This document shows, piece after piece, positions 5,308 to 62,987 of a stretch of DNA of 64,000 bases (within the stretch, counting starts at the first letter, position 1; each line of letters starts with the position of its first letter). The position numbers and the translations under genes were made by a program. The notes beneath the pieces were generated by a model that ran no database searches, was not told the origin of the DNA, and saw nothing but the letters and a program-made list of their open reading frames with translations. Source of the DNA: Neoarius graeffei (lineage: Eukaryota > Chordata > Actinopteri > Siluriformes > Ariidae); contig NC_083587.1 in the NCBI RefSeq assembly GCF_027579695.1, forward strand, positions 57,452,238 through 57,516,237, written 5' to 3'.

Positions 5308-6279
5308 CTATGGACATTGTAATTCACCAGCATCTTTATCTTGTTTATTTTCAGTCTGGTTGCCTTGTTTCACTCGATTCTGTGTCGTGCAGACATTTTC
5401 TGTCCCATTGCCAGTGTAAGTAGTCTTAGTACTGGGTCCTAGGAGACCCTTCAGGTTTCCCTGAAAGGCAGCTGAGGAGAAATAAAAAGTGATTGGGTCG
5501 AAGACTGTGTTGACAGTGGTAAGAAGCAAAGCATCAGCTCGCCAGCTCACATTTGTGTGGAAGATGTAGCCCAGGATGTGCGTGGTGTTGTAGGGCAAGA
5601 AGCAGACCACAAAGACCAACAGTGTGCCAATGGCCATACCAACAGCTCTCCGTCGCTTCCCTTTATTGAGGCTGGCTGTGCGCCTGAGAATGAGGATGAA
5701 TCTTGTGTAGCAGAAGATGCAAATTATGAGTGGGAGATAGTAGAGAATGAGGCATAGCTCCAGGCGCATGGGCAATACCACACTCAGCTGGGACTGAGTA
5801 AAGTTTTTGTAGCAGTCAGAGTCCTGGCTTTCTCCCCCGTTCAGGTGATCCACAATGTATACAAAGCAGAGATGGGTTAACGTAGTGATCCAGACAAAGA
5901 TGCTGCAGATGATTCCATACATTGGCTTCTGGTGGAGCTTATATTTGACTGGGAATGCCACACACAGATAGCGGTCAATACTAACAGCCATCAGCAGCAG
6001 TGAGCTTGTATAAATGGTGGAGAAGAATATGAACGTGGTAAGGGGACACAGGTAACCAGGGAGGAGCCAGCGCATTTCAGATGCTGCCTCGTACATCTTG
6101 AAAGGCAGGAAGAGCAGGAAAAGAAGGTCCGATATGGTCAGGTTGAGCAGGAGGAAGTCAGTGGGTGTGGGTTTGTCACGGAGCTTCTTGATGAAGGAGT
6201 ACAAGGCGAGTGAGTTTGCTGGCAGGCCAATTAAGAAGGTAAAGATGTTGACTGACAGGATCACCTCCCCTGACACCAT
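5308..6279 (-). CDS. ffar2: Free fatty acid receptor 2/3-like GPCR
   Basis: This intronless 323-residue class A GPCR resembles FFAR2 (GPR43) and FFAR3 (GPR41), plasma-membrane receptors for short-chain fatty acids. Seven hydrophobic segments are visible. GLPANSLAL is in TM1, NLTISD with D51 in TM2, the DRY-type motif at 102-104 (DRY) ends TM3, and the TM7 motif is DPITFYF in place of NPxxY, as is usual in this family. The residues that bind the carboxylate in FFAR2 all have counterparts: Y90, H135, R172, H234 and R247. Possible N-glycosylation sites lie in ECL2 (N159-F-T) and ECL3 (N243-V-S). The FFAR hallmark LP-x-RLELCL is at 169-176. The start is the first ATG, giving a short N-terminus normal for FFARs. 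The gene lies downstream, on the same strand, of the siglec gene, as in mammals. FFAR2 versus FFAR3 cannot be separated by eye. Confidence 0.85.
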   Translation of the reverse strand: MVSGEVILSVNIFTFLIGLPANSLALYSFIKKLRDKPTPTDFLLLNLTISDLLFLLFLPFKMYEAASEMRWLLPGYLCPLTTFIFFSTIYTSSLLLMAVSIDRYLCVAFPVKYKLHQKPMYGIICSIFVWITTLTHLCFVYIVDHLNGGESQDSDCYKNFTQSQLSVVLPMRLELCLILYYLPLIICIFCYTRFILILRRTASLNKGKRRRAVGMAIGTLLVFVVCFLPYNTTHILGYIFHTNVSWRADALLLTTVNTVFDPITFYFSSAAFQGNLKGLLGPSTKTTYTGNGTENVCTTQNRVKQGNQTENKQDKDAGELQCP

Positions 6280-6579
6280 AGCTCTGAAAATTGTCTAAAC
6301 AAAGGAGAATCATTCTTTTTAATAATCAGGTTTACTCAAAGGTTTACTTTGATTACTCAAGCCTAGATCTGTTTTTGAGAGCACAATTGAGACGGATAAC
6401 AGAGGGTGAGTTTAAAACTACAATGTTTTTCATAAGTATTCTTAAGTTCTCAGTATAAACACACCAGTTCCTGAAAGGCCTCAGAGTTTGTTAGAGAACA
6501 TACATAAACAAACAGCATCCTGAAGACTAAAGAGCTACCTAAACAATCCTGGGACAAAGTTCATGGACAAAGTAGAGTT
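6280..6579. other. Upstream region of the FFAR gene
   Basis: This segment should hold the 5' UTR and possibly the acceptor of a 5' non-coding exon of the minus-strand FFAR gene. No repeat or second gene is recognisable, and I cannot place a promoter. Confidence 0.35.
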
Positions 6580-7080
6580 TTGCAGGTTTTTTTTTTTTTT
6601 TTTACATATGCCAACCTTTGAACATCCCATTGAGCACTATTAAATCTATTATTTGACAAAGAAAAGAATATGGCACAAAATCAACTCTTCATGGGACAGA
6701 TTCCTAAAGGCCAGCAACTCCTCTCCTGGAGGAGACTGTCCAGTGAAAAGTCAGTGGCTGGGTAAAGAGGACATTAGTAAGAGAAGTAATCAAGGGGACA
6801 AGGGTAACACCGAAAAGCTGGAGAGATCAGATAGGAGAAGCTGTTCACTGGTCAACCATAGCCTGGACCCTCTACAAAGCTGGGCTTTTTGGAAGAATGG
6901 TGAGCTATCTGAATTTCTGTTTGGAATTTACCAAAAATTCATGTTGGAGACTCGGGTAGAAAAAGTTCTCTGGTCTGATGAGACCCACTGAAACTCAATG
7001 ATGCTGCTAATCATCCAAAGAACACTATCATCACAGTGAAACATGGTGGTGGTGGCGGCATCATATTTACCTTGATTGCT
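6580..7080 (+). mobile_element. Degenerate Tc1-like fragment
   Basis: The text CCCATTGAGCACTATTAAAT at 6627-6646 and the following bases match the start of the Tc1 element at 35776-37099 (CCCATGGAGCACTATTAAAT there). Further blocks match its transposase region, for example AAAGTTCTCTGGTCTGATGA near 6961 (the catalytic WSDE block) and GTGAAACATGGTGGTGGTGG near 7037 (VKHGGG). Numerous indels break the frame. No intact terminal repeat is visible. Confidence 0.7.
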
Positions 7081-8163
7081 TGGTTGCTTCTGGATCTATT
7101 AGTTGCTTCTATGCCATACTTTTTCTATTTTTAAATAATGGATTTAATGGTGCTCTGGAGGATTTTCAAAGTTTGGGATATTTTTTAAAACTTGTCTTGA
7201 TTGATATATTTCTACAACTTTGCCTAGGATTATTTTAATTTATTTATTTTTTTTGGTATTCAAGATCTTGTTGTTTTGGTATGTTGTCTAACAAACAGAA
7301 ACAGATGTATTTAAAATCACTTGACACTTGAACTGTACACAGATCAGCTCTGTTGATCTAGAGTATCAGTCAAAATGTTGTACACCCCTACTCATTAATA
7401 GGTTTTTCTGAATTTTGACTATTTTCTACATTGTACAATAATACTGAAGATATCAACACTATGAAATAACATATGGAAAATATGTAGAATTATGTGGTGA
7501 ACAAAAAAGTGTTTAAAAAAATGATTCATAATTTATAACTCCAAATCAGAAAAAGTTGGGATGGTATGTTGAAATTGACATTAAAACCGAAAACAATGAT
7601 TTATAAATAATCTTTGACCTGTATTGCACTCAAAACAGTACAGAAGTATTATTTGATGTTTTACTTCATGATATTTTTTTTTTTCAAAATAAACACATCA
7701 ATTTTGATTCTTGCAACACATTTAAAAAAATTGTTGGGACAGTAAAGCATTACTTTCTAATGATGCCATTCTTTTTCACAAAACTTAAAAGATGTTTAGT
7801 GACTGAAGACACCAAGTGATGAAGCATTTCAGGTGTTATTTTGTCTCACTCTTCCTGCAAAATATGAGAAAACAGGGCACTGACACAACCCCACACCATG
7901 ATAAGCCCTGGCTTTTGGACTTGTTCCTGATAACAGTCTGGATGGTCCTTTTCGTCTTCAGAGCACACGGTGTCCATTTCTTACAAAAAAAACCCCTGGA
8001 ATACTGATTCATCTGACCACATTACATGTTTCCACTGTGTGATGGTCCATGCCAGATGCTTCCAAGCCCAGAGACGTCAACGGTGCTTCTGGACACGTTA
8101 ACATAAGGCTTCATTTTTGTACAGTAAAGTTTTACCTGGCATTACTGGATGTAACTTCATATA

Positions 8164-8225
8164 GATTAGATTAGATTAGATTAGATTAGATTAGATTAGA
8201 TTAGATTAGATTAGATTAGATTAGA
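8164..8225. repeat. TTAGA pentanucleotide array, LINE 3' tail
   Basis: About twelve perfect copies of a TTAGA unit abut the 3' UTR of the minus-strand LINE. They are read as the LINE's own 3' microsatellite tail. Confidence 0.9.
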
Positions 8226-20517: not shown

Positions 20518-23472
20518 TAGGGATGTCCCGATCTGATCACGTGATCGGAAATCGGGCCCGATCACGTGGTTTCAGACTCGATCGGAATCGGGCATTACCT
20601 CCCGATCAGGGATCGGATATATATCTATATAATATATTCTCATTTTTAACGCATCAATAGCTATGCGTTGGCACAGAGTGAGACCAGACCTCTTGTCTCA
20701 ACACAGCAACATCAACTCGTGCGGCATGACATCACTTTGTAGCAGAGACGCTATTGGTTATTGGCTGCCTGTTGCCGGCAAAGTTGAACACGGAAGCAGT
20801 TCGAAACGGAAAGCAAAGCATGTCTGCGGTGTGGCAGTATTTCAAAGTTGATGACAACAACATTGCCATAGCAAACTGTGAAATATGTAAAGTTGGGATT
20901 TCAAGGGGTGGACAGGCATTTAATATGACAAACCTGATACGGCATCTGAAAAACAAACACCCGACACAATACAGCGAGTTTACACACGCAACGCAGCCAA
21001 AGACGACTCAGCTCACGCTGCAGGAGAGTTTAAAAAGGAAAGAAAAAATGCCCCGTGAAAGCGCAAAGGCACAGGAGACCATAGCCAAGATAGCACAGAT
21101 GATTGCAATGAGTGACCTGCCGTTCGCCTTTGTAGAGAACCCTGGGTTTCTTATGCTTATGGAGCACGTAGAACCACGATTTGAAATGCCATCTCATCAC
21201 TATTTCACCGAGAAAGCTCTGCCAGCCCTTCATAAGAAGATTTCTGACACACCACGTGTCCTGTTATCAGATGTACCCCATGTTTCATTCACCACAGACA
21301 TCTGGAGTTCATCCATGGCTCCCATGGCTCTACTAAGCCTTACTGCACAGTGGATTGATTCAAGTTTTGTTTTGCGCTGTGCGACCCTACATGCCCAGGA
21401 ATTTCGCGGATCGCACACTGCAGAACGCATCCAGCAAGCGATGGAAAATATGCTAATCAACTGGGGAATTGACAAGCAACGGGTCCACATAATTTTGCAC
21501 GACAACGTGGCAAATATGAAGAAAGCTATGAGGGATCTGGGGGTGCCGAGTCTGGGCTGCGTAGCCCACTCCTGTCAACTCTGTGTGCATGAAGGCCTGC
21601 TGTCTCAGCGCAGCATGACCGAGACCCTGGCCAACGCAAGGAAGATAGTAGACCATTTTAAACACTCCCCGTTGGCCTACTCTCGACTAGAAGACATCTA
21701 GATGGAGCTTCATATGGATATTAAGCGCCTACAGAAAGATGTACCGGTGAGATTCATCTTGTCATTCTTGAATATATTTTTATTTTATTATTTATTTCCC
21801 ATACACTTGATTTAGTAAGCCACATACATTACGTGCTCTGCACCTAATTTGCACAAAAAATAAAGTGAACCATGTTGTTTTATGTGCAGACACGATGGAA
21901 CAGCAGCCTCTACATGCTGCAGAGCCTACTGGAACAAAAACACGCTCTTAGTGTGTTTGCAGCTGAGCGCACTCTACCAGCTACACTGTCAGCTCACCAG
22001 TGGGAGCTGATGAAGAAGACTGCTGATGTGCTATCCCCCTTTGAAGAGCTGACCAGGGATGTGAGCAGGGAGACTGCAACGGCAGCTGATGTGATCCCTG
22101 CCATAACAGGTAATTTGTATTTTAATTTATTAGTTTATACTGTAACATTTATTGATGTTTGAAAAAAAAAAAAGATCTCATGCATTCATTAAGTTCTCTC
22201 ATTAGTCCTCAAACGTGTTCTGTCTCGGGAGGATGATGATGATGACCAGGGAATAAAAACAATGAAGAGGACTCTCCTGGAGGCAGTGGAGAAGCGCTTT
22301 GCTGATGTTGAAACTGAGCCACTCTACTACATCACCACTCTTCTAGATCCCAGATACAAAGATGGGCAAGTATAGTAAAATTAAAATGCACCTCTAAATG
22401 TTTATATAAAGTCAAGTCATCCCCAGACACCAGTACTAAGCCATTTTATTTTTTAAATTTCTTTTTAATTTAGTTTTGAGAAATTTAATTCTAAGGTTAG
22501 ATCTTTTCATTTTTATATTATTTATTAATTGAGTACATGTGTAGGACGTTGCCTAACTGAAGAGCTGTGCTTTGTGGTGTCTCAGTCTTGTCTCATTATT
22601 TTGAATTGTTAATCTGTTTCTAGCTTTTTCACAAAGTCAGCCAACCTGTTGCTTGCAAAGGAACATCTTATCCAGGAGGTGACAAAGGCAGAGGAGAGGA
22701 GGACTGCCAGTGCAGTGGCAGAGGAAAACGAGGCCACAGCAGAGCCAGTGAGCAAGGCACCACATCATGAAGCATGTAGCAGCCTGGACATCGCCTTTGA
22801 GGAAATCTTACGAGAGAGGCAGTTACAGGGACGGTCTGTGAGTACCACATCAGCAGAAACTCAAGTGCAGACCTACCTCTCAGAAAAAAAAAAAAAAACA
22901 CCCCTAAGAAAAGTGACCCACTTCAATATTGGAAAGAACATGCCATTCAGTTTCCATCTATGGCTGCTGTTGCAACCCAGTATCTCAGTGCCCCCTGCAG
23001 CTCTGTGGACAGTGAGAGACTTTTTAGTGCTGTTGCAAACGTGTTGGATGACAAAAGAAACAGGCTCAAACCTGAAAGGGTAGAAATGCTTGTTTTCATC
23101 AAGAAAAACGTTCCTTTCCTTAATTGAAATTACTGTATACCACTGCGTTCTTAAAAGCAAATTACCGGCACTGTGGCACTTTTATTTTTTTATTTGTTTA
23201 CATTCCTGCCAGGTATTTTAAGGTTATGTTTTTAATTTGTTATTTATTGTTCAAACTACCTCACGTAAGTGCTCTGTTTTCTGTTGTTGGATGTTAAAAT
23301 AAGGTGTTAAATAAAAAATGAGGAACATCCTGGATCCGTTTCTTTCCTCGTCTTTATTATTTTTTTATGGATTATAAGAAGTATCGGATCGGGACTCGGT
23401 ATCGGCAGATACTCAAAATCAGATGATCGGTATCGGATCGGAGGGCAAAAAAACCTGATCGGGACATCCCTA
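20518..23472 (+). mobile_element. hAT transposon with BED-finger transposase, nearly complete
   Basis: The terminal inverted repeats are TAGGGATGTCCCGATC at 20518-20533 and its near complement GATCGGGACATCCCTA at 23457-23472. The 8-bp target duplication TTTAAATG (20510-20517) versus TTGAAATG (23473-23480) differs at one base, as expected for a hAT insertion that has aged slightly. Subterminal regions are rich in CGATC motifs (20530-20620 and 23385-23460), likely transposase-binding repeats. It encodes a spliced transposase annotated separately. Confidence 0.9.
20820..23127 (+). pseudogene. hAT transposase (ZBED-like), four exons, one stop and one frameshift
   Basis: Exon 1 (20820-21746) begins MSAVWQYFKV and has a BED zinc finger (CEICKVGIS, then HLKNKHP), followed by the RNase H-like core with FTTDIWSS (first catalytic Asp) and HDNVANMKKAM (second). 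A TAG at 21699-21701 interrupts it where an open frame continues on both sides, probably CAG to TAG. Exon 2 (21890-22109), exon 3 (22206-22365) and exon 4 (22624-23127) join in matching phases 0, 1 and 2. The third intron has a GC donor (GCAAGT). Exon 4 has a poly-A run at 22887-22900 that shifts the frame. Past it, the hAT dimerisation block (YLSAPCSSVDSERLFSA) is intact to the stop at 23125-23127. Two lesions therefore separate it from a full coding sequence. Confidence 0.85.
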
Positions 23473-25654: not shown

Positions 25655-25799
25655 CTGATCTTCATACTGGTAAGCCGGTTGACCCTGGACTGTGTTAACA
25701 TACAGGTCTTCATCTGAATTGAGACAGTACTCATGGCACTTTTTACCAGGGGTCATGTGCTGGGCAGTGTTGAGGTTTTCATGTGGCTCTGCATGGCTT
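25655..25799 (-). CDS. Siglec gene: cytoplasmic-tail exon
   Basis: The 145-nt exon has an acceptor GTGTATTTAG and a donor CAG|GTAACG. It starts in phase 2 and joins exactly to the transmembrane exon at 31055 (AG + A makes the Arg of WKKR). It encodes 48 residues with three tyrosine clusters: HEYCLNSDE, DLYVNTVQG and PAYQYEDQ. YVN fits the YxN consensus for Grb2 SH2 binding, as in CD22-type tails. None of the tyrosines fits a canonical ITIM (I/V/L/S-x-Y-x-x-I/V/L). It ends in phase 0. Confidence 0.75.
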
Positions 25800-31054: not shown

Positions 31055-31157
31055 CTCTTTTTCCAAATCTTGATTGCTATCACAACAAGTCCTAAAACAA
31101 TGGACACCACGGCCACCACGGCTACCCCAGCCACCAGCCCTGGAGATGAAGCATTCC
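31055..31157 (-). CDS. Siglec gene: transmembrane exon
   Basis: This 103-nt exon has acceptor CTGCTTCAAG and donor AGAG|GTAAAG. In phase with the Ig domain 5 exon it reads GNASSPG, then a 23-residue hydrophobic stretch (LVAGVAVVAVVSIVLGLVVIA), then a basic stop-transfer IKIWKKR. This is a single-pass type I membrane anchor. There is no charged residue in the middle of the segment, so DAP12-type pairing is not suggested. The intron to the domain 5 exon is only 86 bp, and the phase joins exactly on both sides. Confidence 0.85.
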
Positions 31158-31243: not shown

Positions 31244-31510
31244 CTTCAGAATGGACATGTATCTGTTTGATTTCAGTGGCCACATCGTTTGTTGCTGTGC
31301 AGATGACATTGTGGCTCTTTGGTCCAGTCAACTCTGACACCATCATGCTTCCATTGCGCTGTGTTGAGGTGTTGTAGGATGGAAAAAGTGCACTGCTGCC
31401 ATCTACGGTCCAAGAGATGACAGCATTTGGGTTGGCATCTGCTTGACACACACACCGTAGTGTTCCATCTGTTATGGAGCAAAATGAGCTCGGCAGGATG
31501 GATGGAGAGT
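31244..31510 (-). CDS. Siglec gene: Ig domain 5 exon (membrane-proximal)
   Basis: The 267-nt exon, phase 1 at both ends, has acceptor TGCATCTCAG and donor GAAG|GTACTG. It encodes a C2-type Ig domain: DSPSILPSSFC, then LRCVCQADANPNAVISWTVDG (strand B Cys and C-strand Trp), NTSTQRNGS with two N-glycosylation sequons (NTS, NGS), and HNVICTATNDVA with the F-strand Cys. It lacks the usual Tyr before the F-strand Cys. It lies 86 bp from the transmembrane exon and 14 kb from the domain 4 exon. Confidence 0.8.
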
Positions 31511-40399: not shown

Positions 40400-41739
40400 C
40401 CCCGATGGGAGAGGAAGTCTGCCATGACCATCTGCGCCCCCGGCCTGTGGATCCCCTTGAAGTTAAAGGGCTGGAGTGCCAGATACCAACGGGTGATCCA
40501 CGCGTTGGCATCCTTCATGCGGTGGAGTCACTGGAGGGGCACATGGTCTGAACAGAGGGTGAAAGGGCGTCCCAGCAGGTAGTAGTGGAGGGTGAGGACT
40601 GCCCACTTGATGGCCAGACACTCCTTCTCTATCGTGCTGTAGTGCCCCTCACACACTGACAGTTTCCGGCTGATATACAGCACTGGACGGTCCTCCCCCT
40701 CCACCTCTTGGGACAAAACAGCCCCCAGTCCTCTGTCCGACGCATCTGTCTGTAATATAAAGGGGAGAGAAAAGTCAGGGGAGTGTAACAGTGTCCCCCC
40801 ACACAGTGCAGGCTTCACCTCAGAGAAAGCCCGCTGGCATTGCTCCGTCCACTGGACCGGATCTGGTGCCCCCTTTTTAGTGAGATCAGTCAGCGGGCTG
40901 GTGACGTCCAAATAATTAGGTATAAACCTACGATCGTAGCCAGCCAGCCCCAGGAACTGTCTCACCCCCTTTTTGGTCTTGGGCCTCGGGCAGGCCGCAA
41001 TTGCTGCTGTCTTGTTAATTTGGGAATGCACCTGCCTGTTGCCCAAGTGGAAGCCCAGATACCATACTTCCACCCGCCCAATCGCACACTTCTTCGGGTT
41101 GGCTGTGAGACCCGCTCCCCTCAGTGACCTAAGGGCGGCCCTCAGATGTTGCAGGTGCCGCAGCCAGTCATTACTATAGATAATGATGTCATTGAGGTAT
41201 GTGGCCACATAGGTGGCGTGGGGGTGGAGGACCCTATCCATCAGCCCCTGGAATGTAGCGGGTGCCCCAAACAGCCCAAAAGGAAGTGTGACAAACTGGT
41301 GTAAGCCAAACGGTGTGGAAAAGGCCATTTTTTCTTGGGATAATGGAGTCAAGGGGATCTGCCAATAATCCTTTGTCAAATCCAGTGTCGAGTAAAAGCA
41401 AGCCGTGCCTAGTCGATCGAGCAACTCATCAATAGGAGGCACTGGGTATGCATCGAAATTAGACACCATGTTGACTTTTCTATAGTCTACAGAGAACTGA
41501 ACCGACCCGTTGGCCTTGGGTACCAAGACCACCGGGCTGCTGCAGTCACTGTGGGACTCCTCGACGATGCCCATTTCAAGCATGGCCTCGAGTTCTTCCC
41601 GAACCACTTTTTTCTTGTGTTCGGGTAGCCTGTAAGCGCGGCTGCGCACTACCACCCCTGGGGGCGTCTCAATGTGGTGCTCTATGAGGTCGGTGTGGCC
41701 GGGCAGGGGCGAGAAGACATCCAAAAATTCGGTCTGCAA
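40400..41739 (-). pseudogene. Reverse transcriptase and RNase H of the Gmr1-like element
   Basis: The minus-strand frame carries RAYRLPEHKKKVVREEL, VVLVPKANGS, YSTLDLTKDYWQIPL (first catalytic Asp) and FVTLPFGLFGAPATFQ. The catalytic box reads YLNDIIIYS where YxDD is required, so the first Asp of that pair is Asn. RNase H follows, with LQTDASDRGLGAVLSQ, STIEKECLAIKWAV and LCSDHVPLQ. The last part of RNase H and a HRPGAQMVMADFLS end is in another frame near 40518-40400. RT is the last pol domain before the 3' LTR, which is unusual for Ty3/gypsy. Confidence 0.85.
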
Positions 41740-41802
41740 CTGGGCAACCTCCGTGAGTTGGGTCGGGGAGAGGTGGTCTCCACAGGGGACCGGAGAGGTA
41801 CG

Positions 41803-42852
41803 CTATGCCAATGTTCCCTTTTGAACCTCCGGCCCCAGCTCCGCCTTCTCTGGAACCACCAACACCAATGCCACGGGGACCTCCTCGTTCCAGAGTTTGA
41901 GCAGATTGAGGTGGTAAATCTGTAGCGCCCCACCCCTGTCCGTTCGCCTCACCTTGTAGTTGCCGTCCCCGACTCGCCGTGTGACCTCAAAGGGTCCTTG
42001 CCACTTGGCGATCAATTTGGAGCTCGATGTGGGCAACAGTACAAGTACTTTATCTCCCAGTGCGAACTCCCTAAGGCGCGTACCCCTGTCGTACAGGCGG
42101 GTTTGCTGTTCTTGGGCCTGCCGCAAATTCTCCTGGGTTAGGTGTGTGAGTGTGTGGAGTTTTGCATGCACGTCAATAACGTATTGAATTTAATTTTTAC
42201 TTGGTGACGGTCCCTCCTCCCAATTTTCTCACAGCACATCTAGAATGCAGTGCGGCTTACGCCCATATAACAATTCGAACGGGGAGAACCCCGTGGAGGC
42301 TTGTGGGACCTCTCGCACTGCAAATAACAAGGGTTCGAGCCATTTATCCCAATTACGTATGTCCTCACTTACGAATTTTTTAATTATATTTTTGAGGGTG
42401 CAATTGAACCGTTCAACTAAACTGTCCGTTTGTGGGTGATAAACACTGGTGCGGATCGGCTTAATTCCTAATAACCCATACAGTTCATTCAATGTGCATG
42501 ACATAAACGAGGTGCCTTGATCAGTCAGAATCTCTTTGGGGATTCCAACTCGGGAGATGACGCGGAAGGGCGCTTCCGCAATACTGCATGCTGAGATATT
42601 GTGAAGAGGCACTGCTTCCGGGTATCGCGTTGCATAGTCCACCAGAACTAAAATAAAGCGATACCCTCGTGTTGACCGATCTAATGGCCCGACGAGATCC
42701 ATCCCAATTCTTTCGAATGGGGTCTCGATTAATGGGAGAGGGCATAAAGGCGCTTTTGGAATGGCCGCTGGATTTACTAACTGGCATTCGCGGCACACCG
42801 TACACCACCTACGGACATCGCCGTGAATCCCTGGCCAATAGAACTGGGCCAT
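41803..42852 (-). pseudogene. Integrase of the Gmr1-like element, upstream of RT
   Basis: The zinc-binding N-terminus spans the end of the previous frame (HFNPMAGHLG) and this one (FYWPGIHGDVRRWCTVCREC). The catalytic core has GMDLVGPLDRS, ILTDQGTSFMS and SLVERFNCTLK, giving an intact D, D, E set. A frameshift near 42200 leads to the C-terminal GPY module, KWQGPFEVTRRVGDGNYKVR, ending just before the RT frame. Its position between protease and RT is the Gmr1 type of arrangement. Confidence 0.85.
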
Positions 42853-43853
42853 TATTCGGGTTGGGCCTTATCCTGCCCTAAGTGTCCAGCCATGGGATTA
42901 AAGTGAGCCGCCTGGAATACCAATTCCTGGCTGCTCTTTGGAATCAAAAGCTGCGTGACTTGCTCTTTAGTCTGAGTGTCCTGCGTCACTCTGTATAATC
43001 TATCCTTCATAATAGAGAAATAGGAGAAAGACGGGGTGGCGTTTGGCTGGAGCGTTTGACCATCGATTACTCTCACTTGGTCAAACGCATGCCACAGAGT
43101 CGAGTCTCGCGACTGCTCTAATGGAAAATCCGCGAGGGATTCCCCGAGAGAGGGAGGAGGAGCCTGCTGCTCCTCACTCTGACGCGGAGATGACGTAGAC
43201 AGTTCTGTGACAGCTGCTCCCGCCAATGCAACACTGGGACCTCCCCCTGCTGAACTACGGCAGTACCCACTCTTCACTAAATGACTCATTAACTCCCCAA
43301 ATCCTGGCCAATCAGTCCCCAAAATTATCGAGTGGGTAAGGCGAGGATTAACCACCGCCTTTACTCTAAATTTTTCCCATTGAAAAAAAATGTGGACCAA
43401 CACTAAAGGGTAGTTGTGAACATCCCCATGTGCACACAACACCTTCACCAACTGTGCTCCCCCCAATGCCTCGTCTTGCACCAGGCTTTGGTGAATTGAG
43501 GTCTGATTACAGCCAGAGTCCACCGACACCTGATATGTATCCCCTTGGACACTCACCGGTATGCGATACGCTCCGGCCCGATCGAGGGTGGCTCCTGGCG
43601 TGTTGGGGATCCAAACCACCGCGCCCACCTCCATTGCCAAGCACTGCTGTTGGAGGTGGCCCGGCTCCCCGCAGCGCCAGCAAACCGGCCCGGGCTTCCT
43701 CTCTGCACCAGCACTCTGGGGCTCACTCACCTGAGGGGGGGAAGAGACAGACACAGAAGGGGGAAATGGGAGGGCAATGCAGGTGCGGCAGGCCAGCTGG
43801 GGTGGGGCTGGCCCCCGTCTCCACGGTGGGGGAATGGGGAGAGGACGGGACAC
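42852..43853 (-). pseudogene. Gag zinc knuckle and aspartic protease of the Gmr1-like element
   Basis: The CCHC knuckle reads CWRCGEPGHLQQQC. About 40 residues later is YQVSVDSGCNQTSIHQ, an aspartic protease active site in the DSG form. The continuation has LGTDWPGFGEL, the protease C-terminal G-x-D block. The stretch before the knuckle is proline-rich. It overlaps the previous frame around 43723-43853, where an indel in a GA-repeat (43857-43880) has probably shifted the frame. Confidence 0.8.
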
Positions 43854-44595
43854 AGAAGGGGAGAGAGAGAGAGAGGGGAGAAGAGGATGTCCGCTGTCCT
43901 GCCGTCGGAACAGCCGCCAAATGGTCCTCCGCCAGCTCGATGGCCTGATCCAGCGACGCCGGGAGGTGGCACTGGACCCACTCTGCGGTCCCTTCAGGTA
44001 GACGGGCGATGAACTGCTCCAGTACCACCTGATCGATGATTCCCTTGGTGTCGCGGTTGTTGGCCCTCAACCACCACCAGCAGGCATCCCGGAGTTGCTG
44101 GCCAAACGCGAACGGCCGGCCGACTTCCTCCAGGCGCAGATCGTGGAAGCACTGTCACTGCTGTTTGGGGGTGCGCCCCACACGCTGGAGGACGGCCCGG
44201 CAGAGGTCCACGTAGACCAGCCGGTGGTCGGCGGGGAGCTGTAGCGCGGCCAGCTGCGCCTCGCCCGTTAGCAGGGGGAGGAGGCACGCCGCGCGCTGTT
44301 CCACCGGCCAGCCCGAGGCCTCTGCTGCCTGCTCGAAGAGCATGAGGAGGGCCTCGGGGTCGTCATGCGGGCCCATCTTATTTAGGGTGAGGGGGGAAGG
44401 GCCCGCGGCGGTGGAGGTGGTGGACCCTGCCGACGCGAGGAGGTGCCGGAATGCCTGTCGATCTTCCTGCTGCACCAACACCAGGGCCTCGAACCATTGT
44501 TCTTGCTCCTTCCGGAGGGCGACTAGCGCCTGGTGCTGGCTCTGCTGGGCCGTGGCGAGGGCGTGGACTAGGTCCGCGGAGGGGGAGGACTCCAT
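43723..44595 (-). pseudogene. Gag of the Gmr1-like element with SCAN-like capsid domain
   Basis: It begins MESSPSADLVHAL and has a coiled-coil-like start (ATAQQSQHQALVALRKEQEQ), then MGPHDDPEALLMLFE and LLTGEAQLAAL. After a TGA at about 44155 the same frame continues with LRLEEVGRPFAFGQQLRDAC and VVLEQFIARLPEGTAEWVQC. This is the five-helix pattern of SCAN domains of vertebrate zinc-finger proteins, which are thought to derive from Gmr1-like gag. The single in-frame TGA is probably from CGA. Gag assembles the particle and binds the RNA. Confidence 0.8.
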
Positions 44596-44618
44596 GGGGC
44601 TGTTGTTTTCTGTGCTCT

Positions 44619-44638
44619 GATCCCGGGGTTCAGCACCA
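44619..44638 (-). other. Primer-binding site, complementary to tRNA-Phe
   Basis: The given strand reads GATCCCGGGGTTCAGCACCA, one base inside the 5' LTR. This is like the 3' end of vertebrate tRNA-Phe plus CCA at 18 of 20 positions, from my memory of that tRNA, so tRNA-Phe is the likely primer. Confidence 0.65.
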
Positions 44639-44639
44639 C

Positions 44640-44958
44640 TGTGACAGTTCGTATGAGTGGGAGGAGCACAGAAGGATGGCAGGCCAGAACTGAGTTCACA
44701 AAAAAATATTTATTCAGCTTTTCAGCTTATCTAATTGTCTCCCAGTCACACACTGGCGTGCACACACACACAGGTCATCTGGCTGGGGAGAGAGCTCTCC
44801 TCCTCTGCTCTCTCTCTCTCTTTAAATAGGGTGCGGTCACTGGGGAAGACACACAAACACACGTTAATAGACATCAGGTGCAGTGATTCTGCCACTTACC
44901 TTCCCTGACTCCGCCCTCCGGTCACAGACCGATGCTTGACCACACCCCCGCTGCCACA
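44640..44958 (-). repeat. 5' LTR of the Gmr1-like element
   Basis: It is a near-copy of 40016-40332, with scattered transitions (for example CAGTTCATATG versus CAGTTCGTATG). It carries the same TTTAAATAGG block and ends GCCACA, then the target duplication CCCGT (44959-44963). Confidence 0.9.
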
Positions 44959-45502: not shown

Positions 45503-45763
45503 AATGGACACTGAGTGATAGCTTCTTGGATTCACCACGTCCGACTGAGTTAGTGGCAATGCAGGAAACAGACGTGTCTCTCATCACATCTTGAAGGACA
45601 AGAGTACTTCCTTTGTAGTGGATGGTGGTGTTGTTTCGGGTAACAAGCCACTCATAGAGTGTGGGGACAGGGCTGCTGTCGCTGGCACATCTAAGTAAGA
45701 TCTTCTTACCCTCGACCACAGCGCTGCTTCCTTCATAATCTACTCTCACGTCTGCAGGGGCAT
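45503..45763 (-). CDS. Siglec gene: Ig domain 4 exon
   Basis: The 261-nt exon, phase 1 on both sides, has acceptor AATTTTATCAG and donor ATT|GTGAGT. It encodes a C2-type Ig domain: DAPADVRVDYEGSSAVVEG, then ILLRCASDSSPVPTLYEWL (B-strand Cys, C-strand Trp), NNTT with an N-glycosylation sequon, and TSVSCIATNSVGRGESKKL with the F-strand Cys. It is very similar to the exon at 50900-51166, so one arose from the other by duplication. It lies between a Tc1 relic (to 45260) and a Tc1 at 46173. Confidence 0.85.
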
Positions 45764-50899: not shown

Positions 50900-51166
50900 A
50901 ATGGACATTAAGCGATAGCTGCTTTGATTCAGTCCGTCCAATGGAGTTAGTGACGATGCAGGAAACAGATGTGCGTCTTCTGACATCTTGAAGGACAACA
51001 GTACTTCCTTTGTGGCTGGTTGTTGTGGTGGTGTTGTTTTGGGTGACAAGCCACTCATAGAGTGTGGGCAAAGGCTTGCTGTTGCTGGTACATCGAAGCG
51101 AGATCTTCTTCCCTTCCATGACCGTGTTGCTTCCTGCGTAATCTATTTTCACTTCTGTAGGGGCAT
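50900..51166 (-). CDS. Siglec gene: Ig domain 3 exon
   Basis: The 267-nt exon, phase 1 at both ends, has acceptor CCTTTTATCAG and donor ATT|GTAAGC. It encodes a C2 domain: DAPTEVKIDYAGSNTVMEG, ISLRCTSNSKPLPTLYEWL with the B-strand Cys and C-strand Trp, an NTTTTT region with a sequon, and TSVSCIVTNSIGRTESKQL with the F-strand Cys. It is the tandem partner of domain 4 (45503-45763). An inverted copy of its last bases and splice donor lies 350 bp away at 51250-51274. Confidence 0.85.
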
Positions 51167-51670: not shown

Positions 51671-52250
51671 TACCCCTTTTCCACCAAATCAGTTCCAGGG
51701 CTGGTTCGGGGTCAGTGCTGGTGCTGGTTCACAACTCGTTCAACATGCGAGCCAGCTGAGAACCAGTTTGCTTTTCCATAGCTTGCGGTGCTAAGGGAAG
51801 CCACGTCATTACGTTGCTGTATACGTCAGTTACGTCGTTGTATACGTCAGTTATGTCGCTGTATACGTCAGTTACGTTGCTACGTTTGCATAAACCTTGG
51901 CGCGAATATCGAAGCAAAAACAACACGGAAGAAGCAGCAGCAGCAACAACAATAATAATAATGGATGACTTCAAGTTTGTACAGCTGCTGCTTCTCGTCG
52001 CTTAAAAATGGCGATCTTTCGCGGTCTTGTTATTGTTGTTGGTCTTAACAACTCCCCCCCCCCCCCCCCCCCCCCCCCGCTGACGTAAGCGGTTCTTTCC
52101 TCTGGCCCAGCAGAGAGTTGGTGCTAGCCTGGAACCGGTTTTTCTGGCCCCAGAGCCAGTTCTTTGTCATCAGTGGAAACAGAAAACCCAGTTCCAAACT
52201 AAGCACTGGCCCCGAACCAGCCCTGGAACTGCTTTGGTGGAAAAGGGGCG
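51671..52250. mobile_element. MITE with 40-bp inverted repeats (PIF/Harbinger-like)
   Basis: The ends CCCCTTTTCCACCAAATCAG (51673) and the complement of CTGCTTTGGTGGAAAAGGGG (52229-52248) extend as inverted repeats for about 40 bp, including GGGCTGGTTCGGGG. A 3-bp TCA (51668-51670, 52251-52253) is the target duplication size of PIF/Harbinger. Inside are three copies of GCTGTATACGTCAGTTACGT (51816-51886) and a 27-base poly-C run (52051-52078). Confidence 0.75.
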
Positions 52251-54243: not shown

Positions 54244-55140
54244 CTAATACTTGGTTGAAAACCCTTTGTTGGCAATGACTGCCTGAAGTCTTGAACTCAT
54301 GGACATCACCAGACGCTGTGTTTCCTCCTTTTTAATGCTCTGCCAGGCCTTTACTGCAGCGGTTTTCAGTTGCTGTTTGTTTGTGGGTCTTTCTGTCTGA
54401 AGTTTAGTCTTTAACAAGTGAAATGCATGCTCAATTGGGTTGAGATCAGGTGACTGACTTGGCCATTCAAGAATATTCCACTTCTTTGCTTTAATAAACT
54501 CCTGGGTTGCTTTGGCTTTATGTTTTGGGTCATTGTCCTTCTGTATTATGAAACGCCGACCAATCAGTTTGGCTGCATTTGGCTGGATTTGAGCACACAG
54601 TATGTCTCTGAATACCTCAGAATTCATCCGGCTGCTTCTGTCCTGTGTCACATCATCAATAAACACTAGTGACCCAGTGCCACTGGCAGCCATGCATGCC
54701 CAAGCCATCACACTGCCTCCGCCGTGTTTTACAGATGATGTGGTATGCTTTGGATCATGAGCTGTACCATGCCTTCGCCATACTTTTTTCTTTCCATCAT
54801 TCTGGTAGAGGTTGATCTTGGTTTCATCTGTCCAAAGAATGTTCTTCCAGAACTGTGCTGGCGTTTTTAGATGTTTTTTAGCAAAGTCCAATCTAGCCTT
54901 TTTATTCTTGAGGCTTATGAGTGGCTTGCACTGTGCAGTGAACCCTCTGTACTTACTTTCATGCAGTCTTCTCTTTATGGTAGATTTGGATATTGATACG
55001 CCTACCTCCTGGAGAGTGTTGTTCACTTGGTTGGCTGTTGTGAAGGGGTTTCTCTTCACCATGGAAATTATTCTGCGATCATCCACCACTGTTGTCTTCT
55101 GTGGGCGTCCAGGTCTTTTTGCATTGATGAGTTCACCAGT

Positions 55141-55195
<55 letters not shown>

Positions 55196-55661: not shown

Positions 55662-57271
55662 CAGTGGTGCTTGAAAGTTTGTGAACCCTTCAGAATTTTC
55701 TATATTTCTGCATAAATATGACCTAAAACATCATCAGATTTTCACACAAGTCCTAAAAGTAGATAAAGAGAACCCAGTTAAACAAATGAGACAAAAATAT
55801 TATACTTGGTCATTTATTTATTGAAGAAAATGATCCAATATTACATATCTGTGAGTGGCAAAAGTATGTGAACCTTTGCTTTCAGTACCTGGTGTGACCC
55901 CCTTGTGCAGCAATAACTGCAACTAAACGTTTCCAGTAACTGTTGATCAGTCCTGCACACCGGCTTGGAGGAATTTTATCCCATTCCTCCATATAGAACA
56001 GCTTCAACTCTGGGATGTTGATGGGTTTCCTCACATGAACTGCTCGCTTCAGGTCCTTCCACAACATTTCGATTGGATTAAGGTCAGGACTTTGACTTGG
56101 CCATTCCAAAACATTAATTTTATTCTTCTTTAACCATTCTTTGGTAGAACAACTTGTGTGCTTAGGGTCATTGTCTTGCTGCATGACCCACCTTCTCTTG
56201 AGATTCAGTTCATGGACAGATGTCCTGACATTTTCGTTTAGAATTCTCTGGTATAATTCAGAATTCATTGTTTCATCAATGATGGCAAGCCGTCTTGGCC
56301 CAGATGCAGCAAAACAGGCCCAAACCATGATACTACCACCACCATGGTTCACAGATGGGATAAGGTTCTTATGTTGGAATGCAGTGTTTTCCTTTCTCCA
56401 AACATGACACTTCTCATTTAAACCAAAAAGTTCTATTTTGGTCTCATCCGTCCACAAAACATTTTTCCAGTGGCCTTCTGGCTTGTCCATGTGATCTTTA
56501 GCAAACTGCAGACGAGCAGCAATGTTCTTTTTGGAGTGCAGTGGCTTTCTCCTTGCAACCCTGCCATGCACACCATTGTTGTTCAGTGTTCTCCTGATGG
56601 TGGACTCATGAACATTAACATTAACCAATGTGAGAGAGGCCTTTGGTTGCTTAGAAGTTACCCTAGGGTCCTTTGTGACCTCGCCGACTATTATATGCCT
56701 TGCTCTTGGAGTGATCTTTGTTGGTCGACCACTCCTGGAGAAGGTAACAATGGTTTTGAATTTCCTCCATTTGTACACAATCTGTCTGACTGTGGATTGG
56801 TGGAGTCCAAACTCTTTAGAGATGGTTTTGTAACCTTTTCCAGCCTGATGAGCATCAACAATGCTTTCTCTAAGGTCCTCAGAAATCTCCTTTGTTCGTG
56901 CCATGATACACTTCCACAAACATGTGTTGTGAAGATCAGACTTTGATAGATCCCTGTTCTTTAAATAAAACAGGGTGCCCACTCACACCTGATTGTCATC
57001 CCATTGATTGAAAACACCTGACTCTAATTTCACCTACAAATTAACTGCTAATCCTAGAGGTTCACATACTTTTGCCACTCACAGATATGTAATATTGGAT
57101 CATTTTCCTCAATAAATAAATGACCAAGTATAATATTTTTGTCTCATTTGTTTAACTGGGTTCTCTTTATCTACTTTTAGGAATTGTGTGAAAATCTGAT
57201 GATGTTTTAGGTCATATTTATGCAGAAATATAGAAAATTCTAAAGGGTTCACAAACTTTCAAGCACCACTG
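55662..57271 (-). mobile_element. Tc1-B element, complete and young-looking
   Basis: The ends CAGTGGTGCTTGAAAGTTTG (55662) and CAAACTTTCAAGCACCACTG (57252-57271) are perfect inverted repeats in the outer 20 bases. TA flanks both (55660-55661, 57272-57273). The inverted repeats extend, nearly identical, for over 200 bp on each side. It carries a full transposase frame. It inserted in the right inverted repeat of Tc1-A. Confidence 0.95.
55882..56904 (-). CDS. Tc1-like transposase, uninterrupted 340 residues
   Basis: I choose the start at 56904 (MARTKEISEDLRESIVD), which gives 340 residues, the usual Tc1 length; an upstream in-frame ATG adds 26 unlikely residues. The N-terminus has two helix-turn-helix regions (about 1-50 and 65-115) joined by the GRP-hook SRSGRPTKI (57-65). 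The catalytic triad is complete: D153 in WTDETK, D244 in QQDNDPKHT and E279 in NPIEMLW, with 34 residues between the last two. The VNHGGGSIMVW block has N where HGGG is usually preceded by K. The enzyme would cut and paste the element at TA. No stop or frameshift is present; whether it is active is not known. Confidence 0.9.
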   Translation of the reverse strand: MARTKEISEDLRESIVDAHQAGKGYKTISKEFGLHQSTVRQIVYKWRKFKTIVTFSRSGRPTKITPRARHIIVGEVTKDPRVTSKQPKASLTLVNVNVHESTIRRTLNNNGVHGRVARRKPLHSKKNIAARLQFAKDHMDKPEGHWKNVLWTDETKIELFGLNEKCHVWRKENTAFQHKNLIPSVNHGGGSIMVWACFAASGPRRLAIIDETMNSELYQRILNENVRTSVHELNLKRRWVMQQDNDPKHTSCSTKEWLKKNKINVLEWPSQSPDLNPIEMLWKDLKRAVHVRKPINIPELKLFYMEEWDKIPPSRCAGLINSYWKRLVAVIAAQGGHTRY

Positions 57272-57314: not shown

Positions 57315-57315
57315 C

Positions 57316-57386
<71 letters not shown>
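57315..57386. repeat. TC/CA microsatellite
   Basis: CTCTCTCTCTCTCTC followed by about 25 CA units. It is the continuation of the minisatellite interrupted by Tc1-A. Confidence 0.9.
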
Positions 57387-58604: not shown

Positions 58605-58616
58605 TTCAACAAACAT

Positions 58617-58986: not shown

Positions 58987-58998
58987 TTCAACAAACAT

Positions 58999-59459: not shown

Positions 59460-59756
59460 ATAAGACGTTCAGTGAAACTGATGAACTCATTAAAGCTTGT
59501 CTATTGAGAATGCTCTTGCAGCTGAGAAATGCAGCCTGGTCTTGGTTAGTTATGTTGAATGTAGCAGTGGCCTCAGTTACCCATAATCCAGCCTTGTCAT
59601 ACGTGTGGCGCAATACATTAGAAATGGATTGCAAACCCAGCCAGGACATCTGAGGTGGAGATGAGGGGCAGGAATAGTGGAATTTGCATGTTGCAGTGAA
59701 AGTCTTCCCTTTTATCTGTGGGCTTTCCACAGAAATCTGAGGTGTCATAGGTTCCA
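59460..59756 (-). CDS. Siglec gene: Ig domain 2 exon (siglec-type)
   Basis: The 297-nt exon, phase 1 at both ends, has acceptor TTCTTCTCTCACAG and donor TTAT|GTAAGT. It encodes TPQISVESPQIKGKTF, then TATCKFHYSCPSSPPQMSW. The pattern Cys, five residues, Cys, then PP and a W in the C strand is characteristic of siglec domain 2, whose extra Cys pairs with domain 1. Later are ATATFNITNQDQAAFLSC with the F-strand Cys and an NIT sequon. It follows the V-set exon in the order expected for CD22, MAG and other siglecs. Confidence 0.85.
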
Positions 59757-59853
59757 CTGTGAGAGAAGAATAGATGTTGGAAAGATTTCACACCAGAACA
59801 CTTAACATCTAACATAGTGATAGGAAGAACATGGAATGTCTAGTGATAGAAGT

Positions 59854-60315
59854 AGTGTTGTAGTCAAGACCACCTAAACCCAGGCCAAGTCATGACCAAG
59901 TCCAGAGTGTATCAAGACCAAGTCATGACCAAGACCAAGGCAAAGCAAGATCGAGTCAAGACCAGGACCAGACCAGTGGGTGTGAAGGAGTGGGGAGGAG
60001 AAGGAGGAGGAGGGGTGACAGCCGTTAACAGTAGCGAAAATTTCGAATTAGCAATGAGTCAGGTTATTGGTTGCATTTGAAGCAGGAAGCTTTACTGTAT
60101 ATCCAATCGTAGTAACGATGTTAACAAATAAATCAGACAATGCACAGGCAATTTAATGAAATCCCCACAGTCATGGTCTTGACTGGTCTTGAAATAAAAT
60201 CCCGAGTCTCTATGTCCAAGACCAAAACAAGACCGGGTAAAAATGCGGTTGATTCCGAGACGACACTGAGACCTTCAAAAAGTGGTCTTGAGACCGGTCT
60301 CGAGTACTACAACAC
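59854..60315. mobile_element. Compact MITE with AGTGTTGTAG ends
   Basis: AGTGTTGTAGTCAAGACCAC (59854) and TACTACAACACT (ending 60315) are its short inverted repeats. The inside is rich in AAGACCAAG and AGACCGG. It is the uninterrupted relative of 31628-34285. Confidence 0.75.
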
Positions 60316-60488
60316 TAGATACAAGATCACAATATTGTGTTTAAGGCTTTACATTGTATGATTTTTTTCAAGCTGATTTTGCTGTTCTGGACAATAAAAA
60401 TCGCACATCGTAAAATAATTCAACATAAAAGAATAGTGTTCTTAGAGCGCATAATGTGATGTGAATTTTATTTTCAATTAAAATCTTA
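60316..60488. other. Short spacer
   Basis: Nothing recognised. Confidence 0.4.
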
Positions 60489-61623
60489 AGGTGATGATAC
60501 ACGGGGCAACTTTTCGGATGTTGCCGAGCAGGTGCGCTTTGACATTTTCCCACTGAAATCAGGCAACGTAATTTCTATTTTAACGATTTTGATCATTTTG
60601 GGCAACTTTTAAAGATCATCCAATCAGAATGCGAATCACATGACCACCTGAGAGCTTCTGAAATTTTCAACAAACATGGCGGCATCTCCAGTAGTGGAGC
60701 AAAGAAAAAGAAAGACAACTTATATCTTTTCATGCCAGTAAATTGTTGTGTAAACCCATCCATCCATTATCCATAGCCGATTATCCTATACAGGGTCATG
60801 AGCAAGCTGGAGCCTATCCCAGCTGACTATGGGCGAGAGGTGGGATACACCCTGGACAAGTCACCAGGTCATCGCAAGGCTAGAGACATGCAACCATTCA
60901 CACTCACACCTACAGTCAATTTAGAGTCACCAATTAACCTAACCTGCATGTCTTTGGACTGTGGGGGAAACCCACACGGACACAGGGAGAACATGCAAAC
61001 TCCACACAGAAAGGCCCTCGTAGGCCACTGGGCTTGAACCCAGAACCTTCTTGGTGTGAGAGGACAGTGCTAACCACTACACCACTCTATGTGTAAACCC
61101 ATAGTGGTAAACTTACCTCATCAAATGCTTAGAAAACCAGCAGACATCTATTTTTATGTGCTCAGGTTGTAATTAAGACATCGATATGTGTGTATATATA
61201 TAAATTTTTTCAGTTAAGTGTAAACTGCTGTTAACTAACCACCACTCCATAGAGATTGAATGGGATTTCGCTAACTAGCAGTGGTTTTTGCTAACCTAGT
61301 TGGCTGAAAGTTATCACTAGCTATGTAGGGATAATGTTAGCTCTCTTGTGTCAGGTTAAAAGTGATGGGCAGCTCATGATTTTTTTTTGTGTGAGTTGTA
61401 ATAGAGATTGTCAAACTTATCGTCTGATCTAAAAGTGACAAAAGTGACAGCTGCAAATGTTTCAGTGTCCATCTTTGCAGTGTCTGTCTCCCTGGCAATA
61501 GATCTGCTCTTATCTGATTGGTTGTTGCCAATCGTCTGTTGCCCTAATTAGTTGCCCTGTGTCTCACCTGGTTGCCCGTTGCCGGCAACATTGCCCAAAA
61601 AGTTGCCCCATGTATTATCACCT
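60489..61623. mobile_element. MITE (PIF/Harbinger-like), with SINE-A inside
   Basis: The ends AGGTGATGATACACGGGGCAAC (60489) and its complement GTTGCCCCATGTATTATCACCT (61602-61623) are inverted repeats of about 28 bp, with a TTA on both sides (60486-60488, 61624-61626). GTTGCC and GGCAAC motifs repeat inside near both ends (60517-60605, 61530-61600). No transposase. Confidence 0.75.
60759..61089 (-). mobile_element. SINE-A, antisense, inside the MITE
   Basis: The target duplication TGTGTAAACCCA is perfect (60747-60758 and 61090-61101). It has a GGAT-type tail (TCCATCCATTATCC) and small deletions in the body. Confidence 0.95.
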
Positions 61624-61626
61624 TTA

Positions 61627-62633
61627 GAGTGAGAGTACGATGATACAAAACCCACAGCTACAAATATAATAGTGACAATGGCAAAACAGCTTCAGCTAAG
61701 CAGGACATTCCCTTCCTTTACAAGAAAGTAGATAGGTGAAGGTGGAACCAGCTGTATTTATATTACAAGTGACAGCCTTTTTTTTTTACCCAATTTGGTC
61801 ACCTGCCATTTCCGACTCATCAGCCAGCTCTACCCTATCATCCACCCACACTTTGAGGAAAGTGCTATCTACCGTCTTCTGCATACATTAGCTCACAAAT
61901 GGCCACGATTGGCTAGTTGGCTCGCTGTGATTGACAGCAGAGAGAGAGTATATCATCCCTCGCATGGCATTTTTGCTCCTCTGGTTCCTCTCCTTGTTCT
62001 TGGGCGTGGCTTCACTGGAACTTGACCCTGCAAGCTCAATAATTTTCTGTTGCGCCACTTGGGCGCTATGAGTGATAACTTTAGCAGGTTAATGTGCTTC
62101 TACTTTCAGATTTGTACTGAAACATAAATGCACACTTCATGGACAGAACTATATGAACACCCTGATTAATTTGTAGATTTAGTTCAGTTATATCCAGCGT
62201 ATAAAATAAAGCATATAACCATATAGACCCACAGTAAAATGGGTCGTACCAAAGAACTGTTTCTAAGAAGTTTGTTTGTCAAAGCTTTACGGAATCGATT
62301 TCTATGTCCGAGTGTTCGTATGCGACCTTATCATCACTATGCTCAATGCCAAGCATTGACTGGAGTACTGTAAAGCACAGTGCTTTGAAATAAGTTCTGG
62401 TTTTTACATCGCAAGTCCATAATCATGCAAGTCCAAGGTTTTGGAAGGAGACTTTCAACAAGGGCACGATATTCGCATATTTTTGGCCAAATACAGTGTA
62501 TACACATATATTAGGAGTGTAACACAATGCCACTGTTTGTATCTGTCCAGAACACATCATCTGCTCATTCTGGATAATGTAATCTTATTTGGTTATATCC
62601 CTAAGGTATAGTGTATATTATGTCTATACTCAC
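61627..62633. other. Intron between Ig domains 1 and 2, nothing recognised
   Basis: About 1 kb without a supported exon, RNA or transposon. The frame at 61795-62025 has no domain and no splice support. Confidence 0.5.
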
Positions 62634-62987
62634 AAACTTTTATTTCTATGCTTTGGTCATAAAATCCTTTGTTCTGCCCATCAGGTTTCCAGATCCATAC
62701 ATACAGGGACACCGTGCCGTCTTGTTGCTGGACATTCTCAATCCTTAAAGTGCAGTTTCCCTCTTGGGCATTTCCCGGGACTGATGTCCTTCCTTTAAAC
62801 TCAGCTATTATCTCGCTGCGGTCGGTGGAGTACACCACTGGGTAGCCTATTGATTTATACTTATACCATGTGACTTTACTGTAAGGGTCAGTGCTGCATG
62901 GCACTAACACGCAGGTCCCCTTGATGGCGGTGACTGATTGTTGCACGGTTGCCTTCCAGCAGCGACACCCACTGCCTAAGAGTAAAA
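62634..62987 (-). CDS. Siglec gene: V-set domain exon (domain 1)
   Basis: The 354-nt exon, phase 1 at both ends, has acceptor GTCTTATCTTCGCAG and donor GTTT|GTGAGT. It begins with the last hydrophobic residues of a signal peptide (LLLGSG). The V-set domain then reads CRCWKATVQQSVTAIKG, TCVLVPCSTD, VTWYKYKS, KGRTSV, NCTLRIENVQQQDG. The pairs TCVLVPC and NCTLRI show the siglec arrangement in which the B-strand Cys bonds to the E strand rather than the F strand. The F strand reads SLYVWIWK, so the Arg that binds sialic acid in most siglecs appears to be Val or Trp. The first exon (start codon and most of the signal peptide) is not in the window. Confidence 0.85.

What the first reader, a model, noticed from the sequence alone, without database searches (positions are those of the whole stretch)
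5308..62987. Siglec-FFAR gene pair: probable conserved microsynteny with human 19q13
Seven minus-strand exons from 62987 to 25655 join in matching phases into a CD22/MAG-like siglec. The next minus-strand gene is an FFAR2/3-like receptor. In human the order MAG, CD22, FFAR1, FFAR3, FFAR2 runs the same way on one strand. If right, a B-cell or myelin lectin gene and a gut metabolite receptor have remained neighbours since the ancestor of ray-finned fish and tetrapods. The five Ig domains are the MAG number (CD22 has seven).
Basis: partly seen in the sequence, partly recalled or inferred. Interest (0 to 1): 0.75.

Follow-up and report, generated by a model that had tools for sequence, protein, structure and literature searches.

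The report
Arginine-less fish siglec beside FFAR2
A fish immune-receptor gene of the siglec family lies next to a fatty-acid-receptor gene, much as in humans, but it belongs to a branch that has lost the residue siglecs use to hold sialic acid, and the fish's true MAG gene is on another chromosome.

Summary
Seven minus-strand exons (62987-25655) have splice sites and joinable phases and encode V, four C2 domains, a transmembrane segment and part of a tail. Solved-structure searches rank MAG first for the first two domains, and CD22 first with MAG third for the last three. The GPCR (6279-5308) is FFAR2.

Hepcidin and ETFB lie 0.2-0.4 Mb away on the same chromosome, matching the etfb-hamp-ffar2 block reported in salmonids. 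But the fish's true MAG (52% identical to mouse MAG in the V domain) and the window V domain's other relatives are on C17. The gene is not MAG and not a plain CD22 orthologue: its V domain groups (98/96) with four C17 V domains that, like it, lack the F-strand arginine siglecs use for sialic acid. Siglec-FFAR2 adjacency is real; its antiquity is plausible, not shown. The FFAR2 gene ends a tandem array of intact and broken copies.

Most likely: a CD22-like cell-surface receptor that does not bind sialic acid canonically, beside a probably functional short-chain-fatty-acid receptor. First and last exons were not found.

The parts
62634..62987 (-). siglec exon: end of signal peptide and V-set domain; F strand reads LYVWIWK, no arginine
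   Evidence: splice sites, phase 1/1; V+d2 to MAG 1e-17; alignment, tree; relatives on C17
59460..59756 (-). siglec exon: C2 domain 2 with the extra Cys (YSCP) that in siglecs bridges to the V domain (bridge recalled)
   Evidence: (next best in the genome C17, 32%)
50900..51166 (-). siglec exon: C2 domain 3
   Evidence: 71% identical to domain 4
45503..45763 (-). siglec exon: C2 domain 4, duplicate of domain 3
   Evidence: (best match outside the gene C17:43.1496 Mb, 39%)
31244..31510 (-). siglec exon: C2 domain 5, aligned with MAG domain 5 including its CxC
   Evidence: no other match in the genome at E 0.01
31055..31139 (-). transmembrane exon (LVAGVAVVAVVSIVLGLVVIAIKIWKK), phase 1 to 2
   Evidence: only candidate with phase 1 to 2 over the hydrophobicity cut-off; weak acceptor
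25655..25799 (-). first cytoplasmic-tail exon, with EDLYVNTV and YQYED; phase 2 to 0, no stop, so at least one further exon is expected
   Evidence: no other match in the genome at E 0.05
5308..6279 (-). FFAR2 gene, intact single exon, 323 aa plus stop
   Evidence: FFAR2 1.6e-83; paralogues

Best explanation
The window carries a host gene for a siglec-type cell-surface receptor of the fish CD22-like kind (V, four C2, TM, tail). It lies upstream, on the same strand, of the last gene of an FFAR2 tandem array, inside the etfb-hamp-ffar2 block reported in salmonids. Shown: exon structure, family, genomic setting, and absence of the F-strand arginine in this gene and in four C17 V domains that group with it. 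Inferred: the receptor sits on leukocytes. It does not hold sialic acid by the usual salt bridge and reads another ligand with a rebuilt F strand (W, then I, M or V, then D in four of the five). It signals through tail tyrosines (YVNT, a Grb2-SH2 type YxN motif by recall) and perhaps through exons not found. FFAR2 most likely senses short-chain fatty acids, because H140, R180, H242 and R255 of the human receptor (roles recalled) are all kept. The two genes are neighbours by descent of the block, not known to act together.
For: Splice-compatible exons. V+d2: 14 of 14 solved sequences at E 0.01 are siglecs. CD22 first and MAG third of 72 for d3-d5. C17 CD22-like d3 matches window d4 better (38%, 3.8e-12) than C17 MAG d3 does (28%, 3.5e-5). 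The arginine is absent in 5 of 16 fish V exons read and present in 11; the five form one group at 98/96, in 96% of 200 bootstrap trees, in a tree holding 13 of the 16. d3 and d4 differ with dN 0.17, dS 0.44 (NG86) or 0.19, 0.37 (YN00), which suggests constraint since their duplication. Hepcidin and ETFB are on the same chromosome. MAGa and MAGb lie on trout chromosomes 2 and 3 (PMC7226832) and ffar2b copies with hamp and usf2 on trout chromosomes 2 and 3 (PMC10029227). SCFA residues kept (alignment).
Against: First and last exons were not found, there are no transcript data, and no ITIM was seen. The TM and tail acceptors are weak by a simple score, so part of the model could be wrong or the gene decaying. 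MAG and the V domain's relatives are on C17, so the siglec may have come to C20 secondarily. One of the six other matches of the window V exon, C17:43.0237 Mb (L010), keeps the arginine. The V-domain tree is short (117 columns) with a long window branch (0.99). No outside fish genome could be compared directly.
Confidence: 0.7

Rival explanations
1. One reading: the gene is the fish MAG or CD22 orthologue and has stayed beside FFAR since the ancestor of ray-finned fish and tetrapods.
For: Best solved relative of V+d2 is MAG; CD22 d6-d7 is best for d3-d4; same strand and order; hepcidin and ETFB nearby.
Against: The genome's MAG is at C17:42.937 Mb with 52% identity to mouse MAG. The window V domain is outside the MAG group and lacks the arginine that fish MAG and trout and whitefish CD22 keep (PMC7226832 sections read). 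The other V-exon matches are on C17.
Confidence: 0.12
2. The adjacency is secondary: a C17-type siglec copy moved to the FFAR2 array on C20 during fish evolution, and the likeness to human 19q13 is coincidence.
For: All six other V-exon matches are on C17. None of the listed siglec matches fell on C23, which carries two more FFAR2-like genes (lists of best candidates). The kinase gene on the far side is not a 19q13 neighbour (by recall).
Against: The landing place is the block whose human counterpart holds siglecs (FFAR and hepcidin; human map recalled), with same strand and order. Trout has MAG on the same two chromosomes as ffar2b. Window d5 and tail exons have no other match in the genome, so any move was not recent.
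Confidence: 0.3
3. The gene is a decaying pseudogene, cut up by transposons, that lost its first and last exons.
For: Introns hold transposon frames (by eye); a Tc1-like element lies about 85 bp upstream of the V exon; no terminal exon found; arginine absent.
Against: All seven exons are open with splice sites, and the Ig cysteines are in place (read). The arginine loss is shared with four C17 V exons, so it is older than any decay here. dN is below dS between d3 and d4.
Confidence: 0.15

Closest known systems
Fish CD22-like siglecs (this genome's C17:43.02-43.15 Mb region)
   Same: V domain grouped with four of them at 98/96, all without the F-strand arginine; d4 best outside match 39%, at C17:43.1496 Mb
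   Different: On another chromosome; tail and d5 without another match in the genome; other C17 V exons there keep the arginine (L010, L036, L045)
MAG (Siglec-4)
   Same: Five Ig domains (MAG number recalled); best solved relative for V+d2 (1e-17); d5 aligned with MAG d5
   Different: No arginine where MAG has R118; the true MAG orthologue is on C17
CD22 (Siglec-2)
   Same: d3-d4 best match CD22 d6-d7, 1.7e-16; NCT sequon, probably the conserved N101 site described in PMC7226832 (section read; position matched by eye); neighbour of FFAR as in human
   Different: Five, not seven, Ig domains (human number recalled); R120, conserved in trout and whitefish CD22, is absent; no ITIM found
FFAR2 of the salmonid etfb-usf2-hamp-ffar2 block (PMC10029227)
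   Same: Best hit FFAR2; hepcidin and ETFB on the same chromosome; several ffar2 copies
   Different: Here an array of two alternating types with broken copies beside a siglec; in the passages seen the trout text names no siglec, only a gene labelled ceacam6

Membership tests
Siglec family (sequence and architecture) | N-terminal V-set domain followed by C2 domains, TM and tail | tested here: met
   in Pfam only the V-set match passes its curated cut-off
Siglec family (sequence and architecture) | Extra cysteines in V (B and E strands) and d2 (interdomain bridge; pattern recalled) | tested here: met
   GTCVLVPC, NCTL and YSCP present; the bridges themselves were not tested
Siglec family (sialic acid lectin) | F-strand arginine that contacts sialic acid | tested here: not met
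   LYVWIWK in place of YYFRAD (fish MAG) and YYFRGD (mouse MAG); binding itself was not tested
Inhibitory siglec | ITIM in the tail | tested here: inconclusive
   none seen in the tail exon; downstream scans gave nothing convincing, but the tail is incomplete
Activating (DAP12-pairing) siglec | Basic residue inside the TM segment (recalled) | tested here: inconclusive
   only lysine is near the inner edge, AIKIWKK
MAG orthologue | Groups with MAG and keeps R118 | tested here: not met
CD22 orthologue | Groups with CD22 and keeps R120 | tested here: inconclusive
   arginine absent; d3-d4 nearest CD22 d6-d7 among solved structures; no CD22 V domain was in the trees
FFAR2 | Best match FFAR2; SCFA-contact residues H140, R180, H242, R255 (roles recalled) | tested here: met
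   alignment, all four kept
Human 19q13 microsynteny (MAG-CD22-FFAR) | Siglec and FFAR adjacent on one strand, siglec upstream | tested here: met
   human order recalled
Human 19q13 microsynteny (MAG-CD22-FFAR) | MAG beside CD22 and FFAR; hepcidin on the MAG side (recalled) | tested here: not met
   MAG on C17; hepcidin on the FFAR side

The most novel reading that the evidence does not exclude
A whole branch of fish CD22-like receptors, including this gene, exchanged the sialic-acid arginine once for a tryptophan motif and now reads a different ligand, while one member stayed at the ancestral siglec-FFAR-hepcidin site that in mammals holds MAG and CD22.
Probability: 0.3. Interest if true: 0.55.

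Novelty: new member of a known kind. Interest (0 to 1): 0.36.

Why it matters
It ties a siglec to the etfb-hamp-ffar2 block in a fish, a block whose human pieces lie in both siglec neighbourhoods (HAMP and FFAR beside MAG and CD22; ETFB beside the CD33-related cluster; all by recall). That bears on whether all siglecs come from one ancestral region. It also warns that fish siglec-like genes can include receptors that lack the residue for binding sialic acid in the known way, so glycan function should not be assumed from the name.

Tried and rejected
MAG identity: rejected, true MAG is on C17. A transmembrane-like ORF at 51729-52001: read and set aside by eye; it has no Ig domain in frame and sits between d2 and d3. 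Downstream ITIM or terminal exon: scans gave only matches judged by eye unconvincing or transposon. Signal-peptide exon: two weak candidates 13-16 kb upstream, not accepted. Structure of the V domain: single-sequence AlphaFold gave mean pLDDT 42.8, discarded, no fold search run. FFAR1 as a further marker: the C17:38.36 Mb receptor is LPAR6; a C24 candidate was read and not identified; FFAR1 was not located. Papers: judged from the listed titles and starts of abstracts, (20 of 56 listed; 12 of 28 listed) showed no paper on siglec-ffar linkage in fish; of these only asked about the arginine, and showed none on an arginine-less fish siglec branch. The library lacks most subscription journals; a 2009 study of siglec ancestry (recalled) was not read. 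PMC10029227: passages seen (12 of 18 and 5 of 5 places). PMC7226832: outline with abstract, passages and two whole sections seen. Other papers: listings only. Rows left out of the tree: three C22 V exons (L040, L041, L043) similar by eye to those kept, and L047, the same exon as L010; L046 was cut short by the fetch. The hit at C20:69.78 Mb was not fetched.
Full report
Setting. The window is 64 kb of a 2.34-Gb genome held as G000, contig C20:57452238-57516237.

Observation. Seven exons on the minus strand were re-derived with splice sites: V 62987-62634, d2 59756-59460, d3 51166-50900, d4 45763-45503, d5 31510-31244, TM 31139-31055 and tail 25799-25655. Phases join (1/1 for the five Ig exons, then 1 to 2 and 2 to 0). 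The TM exon was the only candidate with phase 1 to 2 over the hydrophobicity cut-off between d5 and the tail exon. The TM and tail acceptors score low. The tail exon ends in phase 0 without a stop, so the gene goes on; scans to 6000 gave pattern matches, none convincing by eye. The V exon begins inside a signal peptide; no first exon was recognised in the window, where a Tc1-like element fills about 63073-64000.

Family. V+d2 matched 14 distinct solved sequences at E 0.01, all siglecs, MAG first at 1e-17 and CD22 last at 0.0034. d3-d5 matched 72 at E 0.01: CD22 d6-d7 at 1.7e-16, ROBO2 at 4e-14, MAG d3-d5 at 1.9e-12, and many other Ig proteins (60 shown); the MAG match runs through domain 5. 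In Pfam the V-set match passes its cut-off (1.6e-9); the four C2 exons stay under their curated cut-offs. The receptor gene is FFAR2 by a wide margin over FFAR1 and a small one over FFAR3; the trout study found no ffar3 in gar or the teleosts it analysed (PMC10029227). The four human FFAR2 residues that I recall as short-chain-fatty-acid contacts (H140, R180, H242, R255) are kept in the alignment.

Genome context. FFAR2 copies form an array on the minus strand from 57.398 to 57.4585 Mb. Four are of a second type, about 48-54% identical to the window gene, one of them broken near its start. Four partial or broken copies are of the window's type. The window gene is the copy nearest the siglec. 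Four more FFAR2-like genes lie at 56.364-56.461 Mb on the plus strand and two on C23. Hepcidin lies at 57.086 and 57.110 Mb on the minus strand, with the mature peptide legible in L049. ETFB exons lie at 57.239-57.2515 Mb on the plus strand; two exons joined match human ETFB at 2.1e-48. This matches the groups etfb-usf2-hamp-iglon5-ffar2b in trout and hamp-usf2-etfb-lim2-ffar2a in salmon and huchen (PMC10029227, passages). On the far side of the siglec lies a plus-strand gene with armadillo-like exons (by eye) and a kinase exon nearest NEK1 in solved structures (8.4e-12, other kinases close behind), by recall nek10. I did not look for usf2, lim2, iglon5 or ago1/3, and did not locate FFAR1.

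Other siglecs. Mouse MAG d1-d2 finds a MAG orthologue at C17:42936946-42937728 (52% in V, 35% in d2) and further V-type matches at C17:43.02-43.14, C22:0.39-2.55, C20:64.7 and C20:69.78 Mb (16 matches). The window V exon has six other matches at E 0.01, all on C17: five at 43.0237-43.0329 Mb (four without the arginine, one, L010, with it) and MAG. The window d2's three other matches are also on C17. d4 has 13 matches besides itself: d3, one on C17 at 39%, one at C20:64.70 Mb, and ten weak ones on C18. d5 and the tail exon have none. None of the listed matches fell on C23; the tool scores only its best candidates.

Arginine. Of 16 fish V exons read (window; L010, L012, L033, two in L035, L036, L038-L046), 11 have FR on the F strand and 5 do not: the window (LYVWIWK), L012 (LYTWVDP), two in L035 (LFPWMDP, LYPWMDP) and L046 (LFPWMDQ). 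In a 15-row tree (13 of the 16 plus mouse MAG and human Siglec-5) the five form one group, 98/96, in 96% of 200 bootstrap trees; the two MAGs pair at 95/96. An earlier 9-row tree agreed (100/99). Which residue stands at the arginine's place can shift by one in the alignment, but no arginine lies near it in the five. Fish MAG is reported to keep R118, and trout and whitefish CD22 to keep R120 (PMC7226832, sections read).

Reading. The gene is a siglec by architecture and sequence and fails the sialic-acid arginine test. I expect a cell-surface receptor with a changed ligand, signalling through tail tyrosines; all of this beyond the sequence is inference. dN and dS between d3 and d4 (0.17 and 0.44 by NG86, 0.19 and 0.37 by YN00) suggest constraint. 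The siglec-FFAR2 adjacency sits in a block that corresponds to the human CD22-FFAR-HAMP site (human map recalled, apart from the title seen), which favours descent over chance. But MAG and the V-domain relatives are on C17, and hepcidin is on the opposite side compared with human, so exact microsynteny is not shown. Trout reports put MAG, and ffar2b with hamp, on the same two chromosomes, 2 and 3, which fits a split of one ancestral block in the present fish; the trout group also lists a gene labelled ceacam6 near ffar2b, which may be a siglec (untested).

Verdict. Observation confirmed, interpretation partly supported, a new member of a known kind with an interesting arginine-less branch.

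Noticed in passing
C20:57397919-57458516 (left-flank loci L013-L022 and window 5308-6279): FFAR2 tandem array of two alternating types. Copies of the window's type at 57.407, 57.420, 57.425 and 57.441 Mb are partial or broken, and three of four second-type copies have Q at the place of H140.
   Followed up: partly
C17:43023000-43033000 (L010, L012, L035, L046): Siglec-like exons about 90 kb from MAG, in which four V domains lack the F-strand arginine and share W, then M or V, then D.
   Followed up: partly
C22:393700-2546650 (L038-L043): Six very similar siglec-like V exons that keep the arginine (YYFRIE or YHFRIE), spread over 2 Mb.
   Followed up: no
C20:57085965-57109887: Two hepcidin genes 24 kb apart, near the ffar2 array.
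   Followed up: partly
window 40528-44709: Minus-strand Ty3/Gypsy-like retroelement reading frames (GC 55% at 40-44 kb), lying in the intron between d4 and d5 of the siglec; named by eye.
   Followed up: no
window 20730-23127; 54244-55194; 55882-56982; 63073-64000: hAT-like and Tc1/mariner-like transposase frames inside or beside the siglec gene; named by eye.
   Followed up: no
C21:63381541 and 63593921: Two ETF-domain matches, each in one open frame of 150 aa, perhaps retrocopies or foreign DNA.
   Followed up: no
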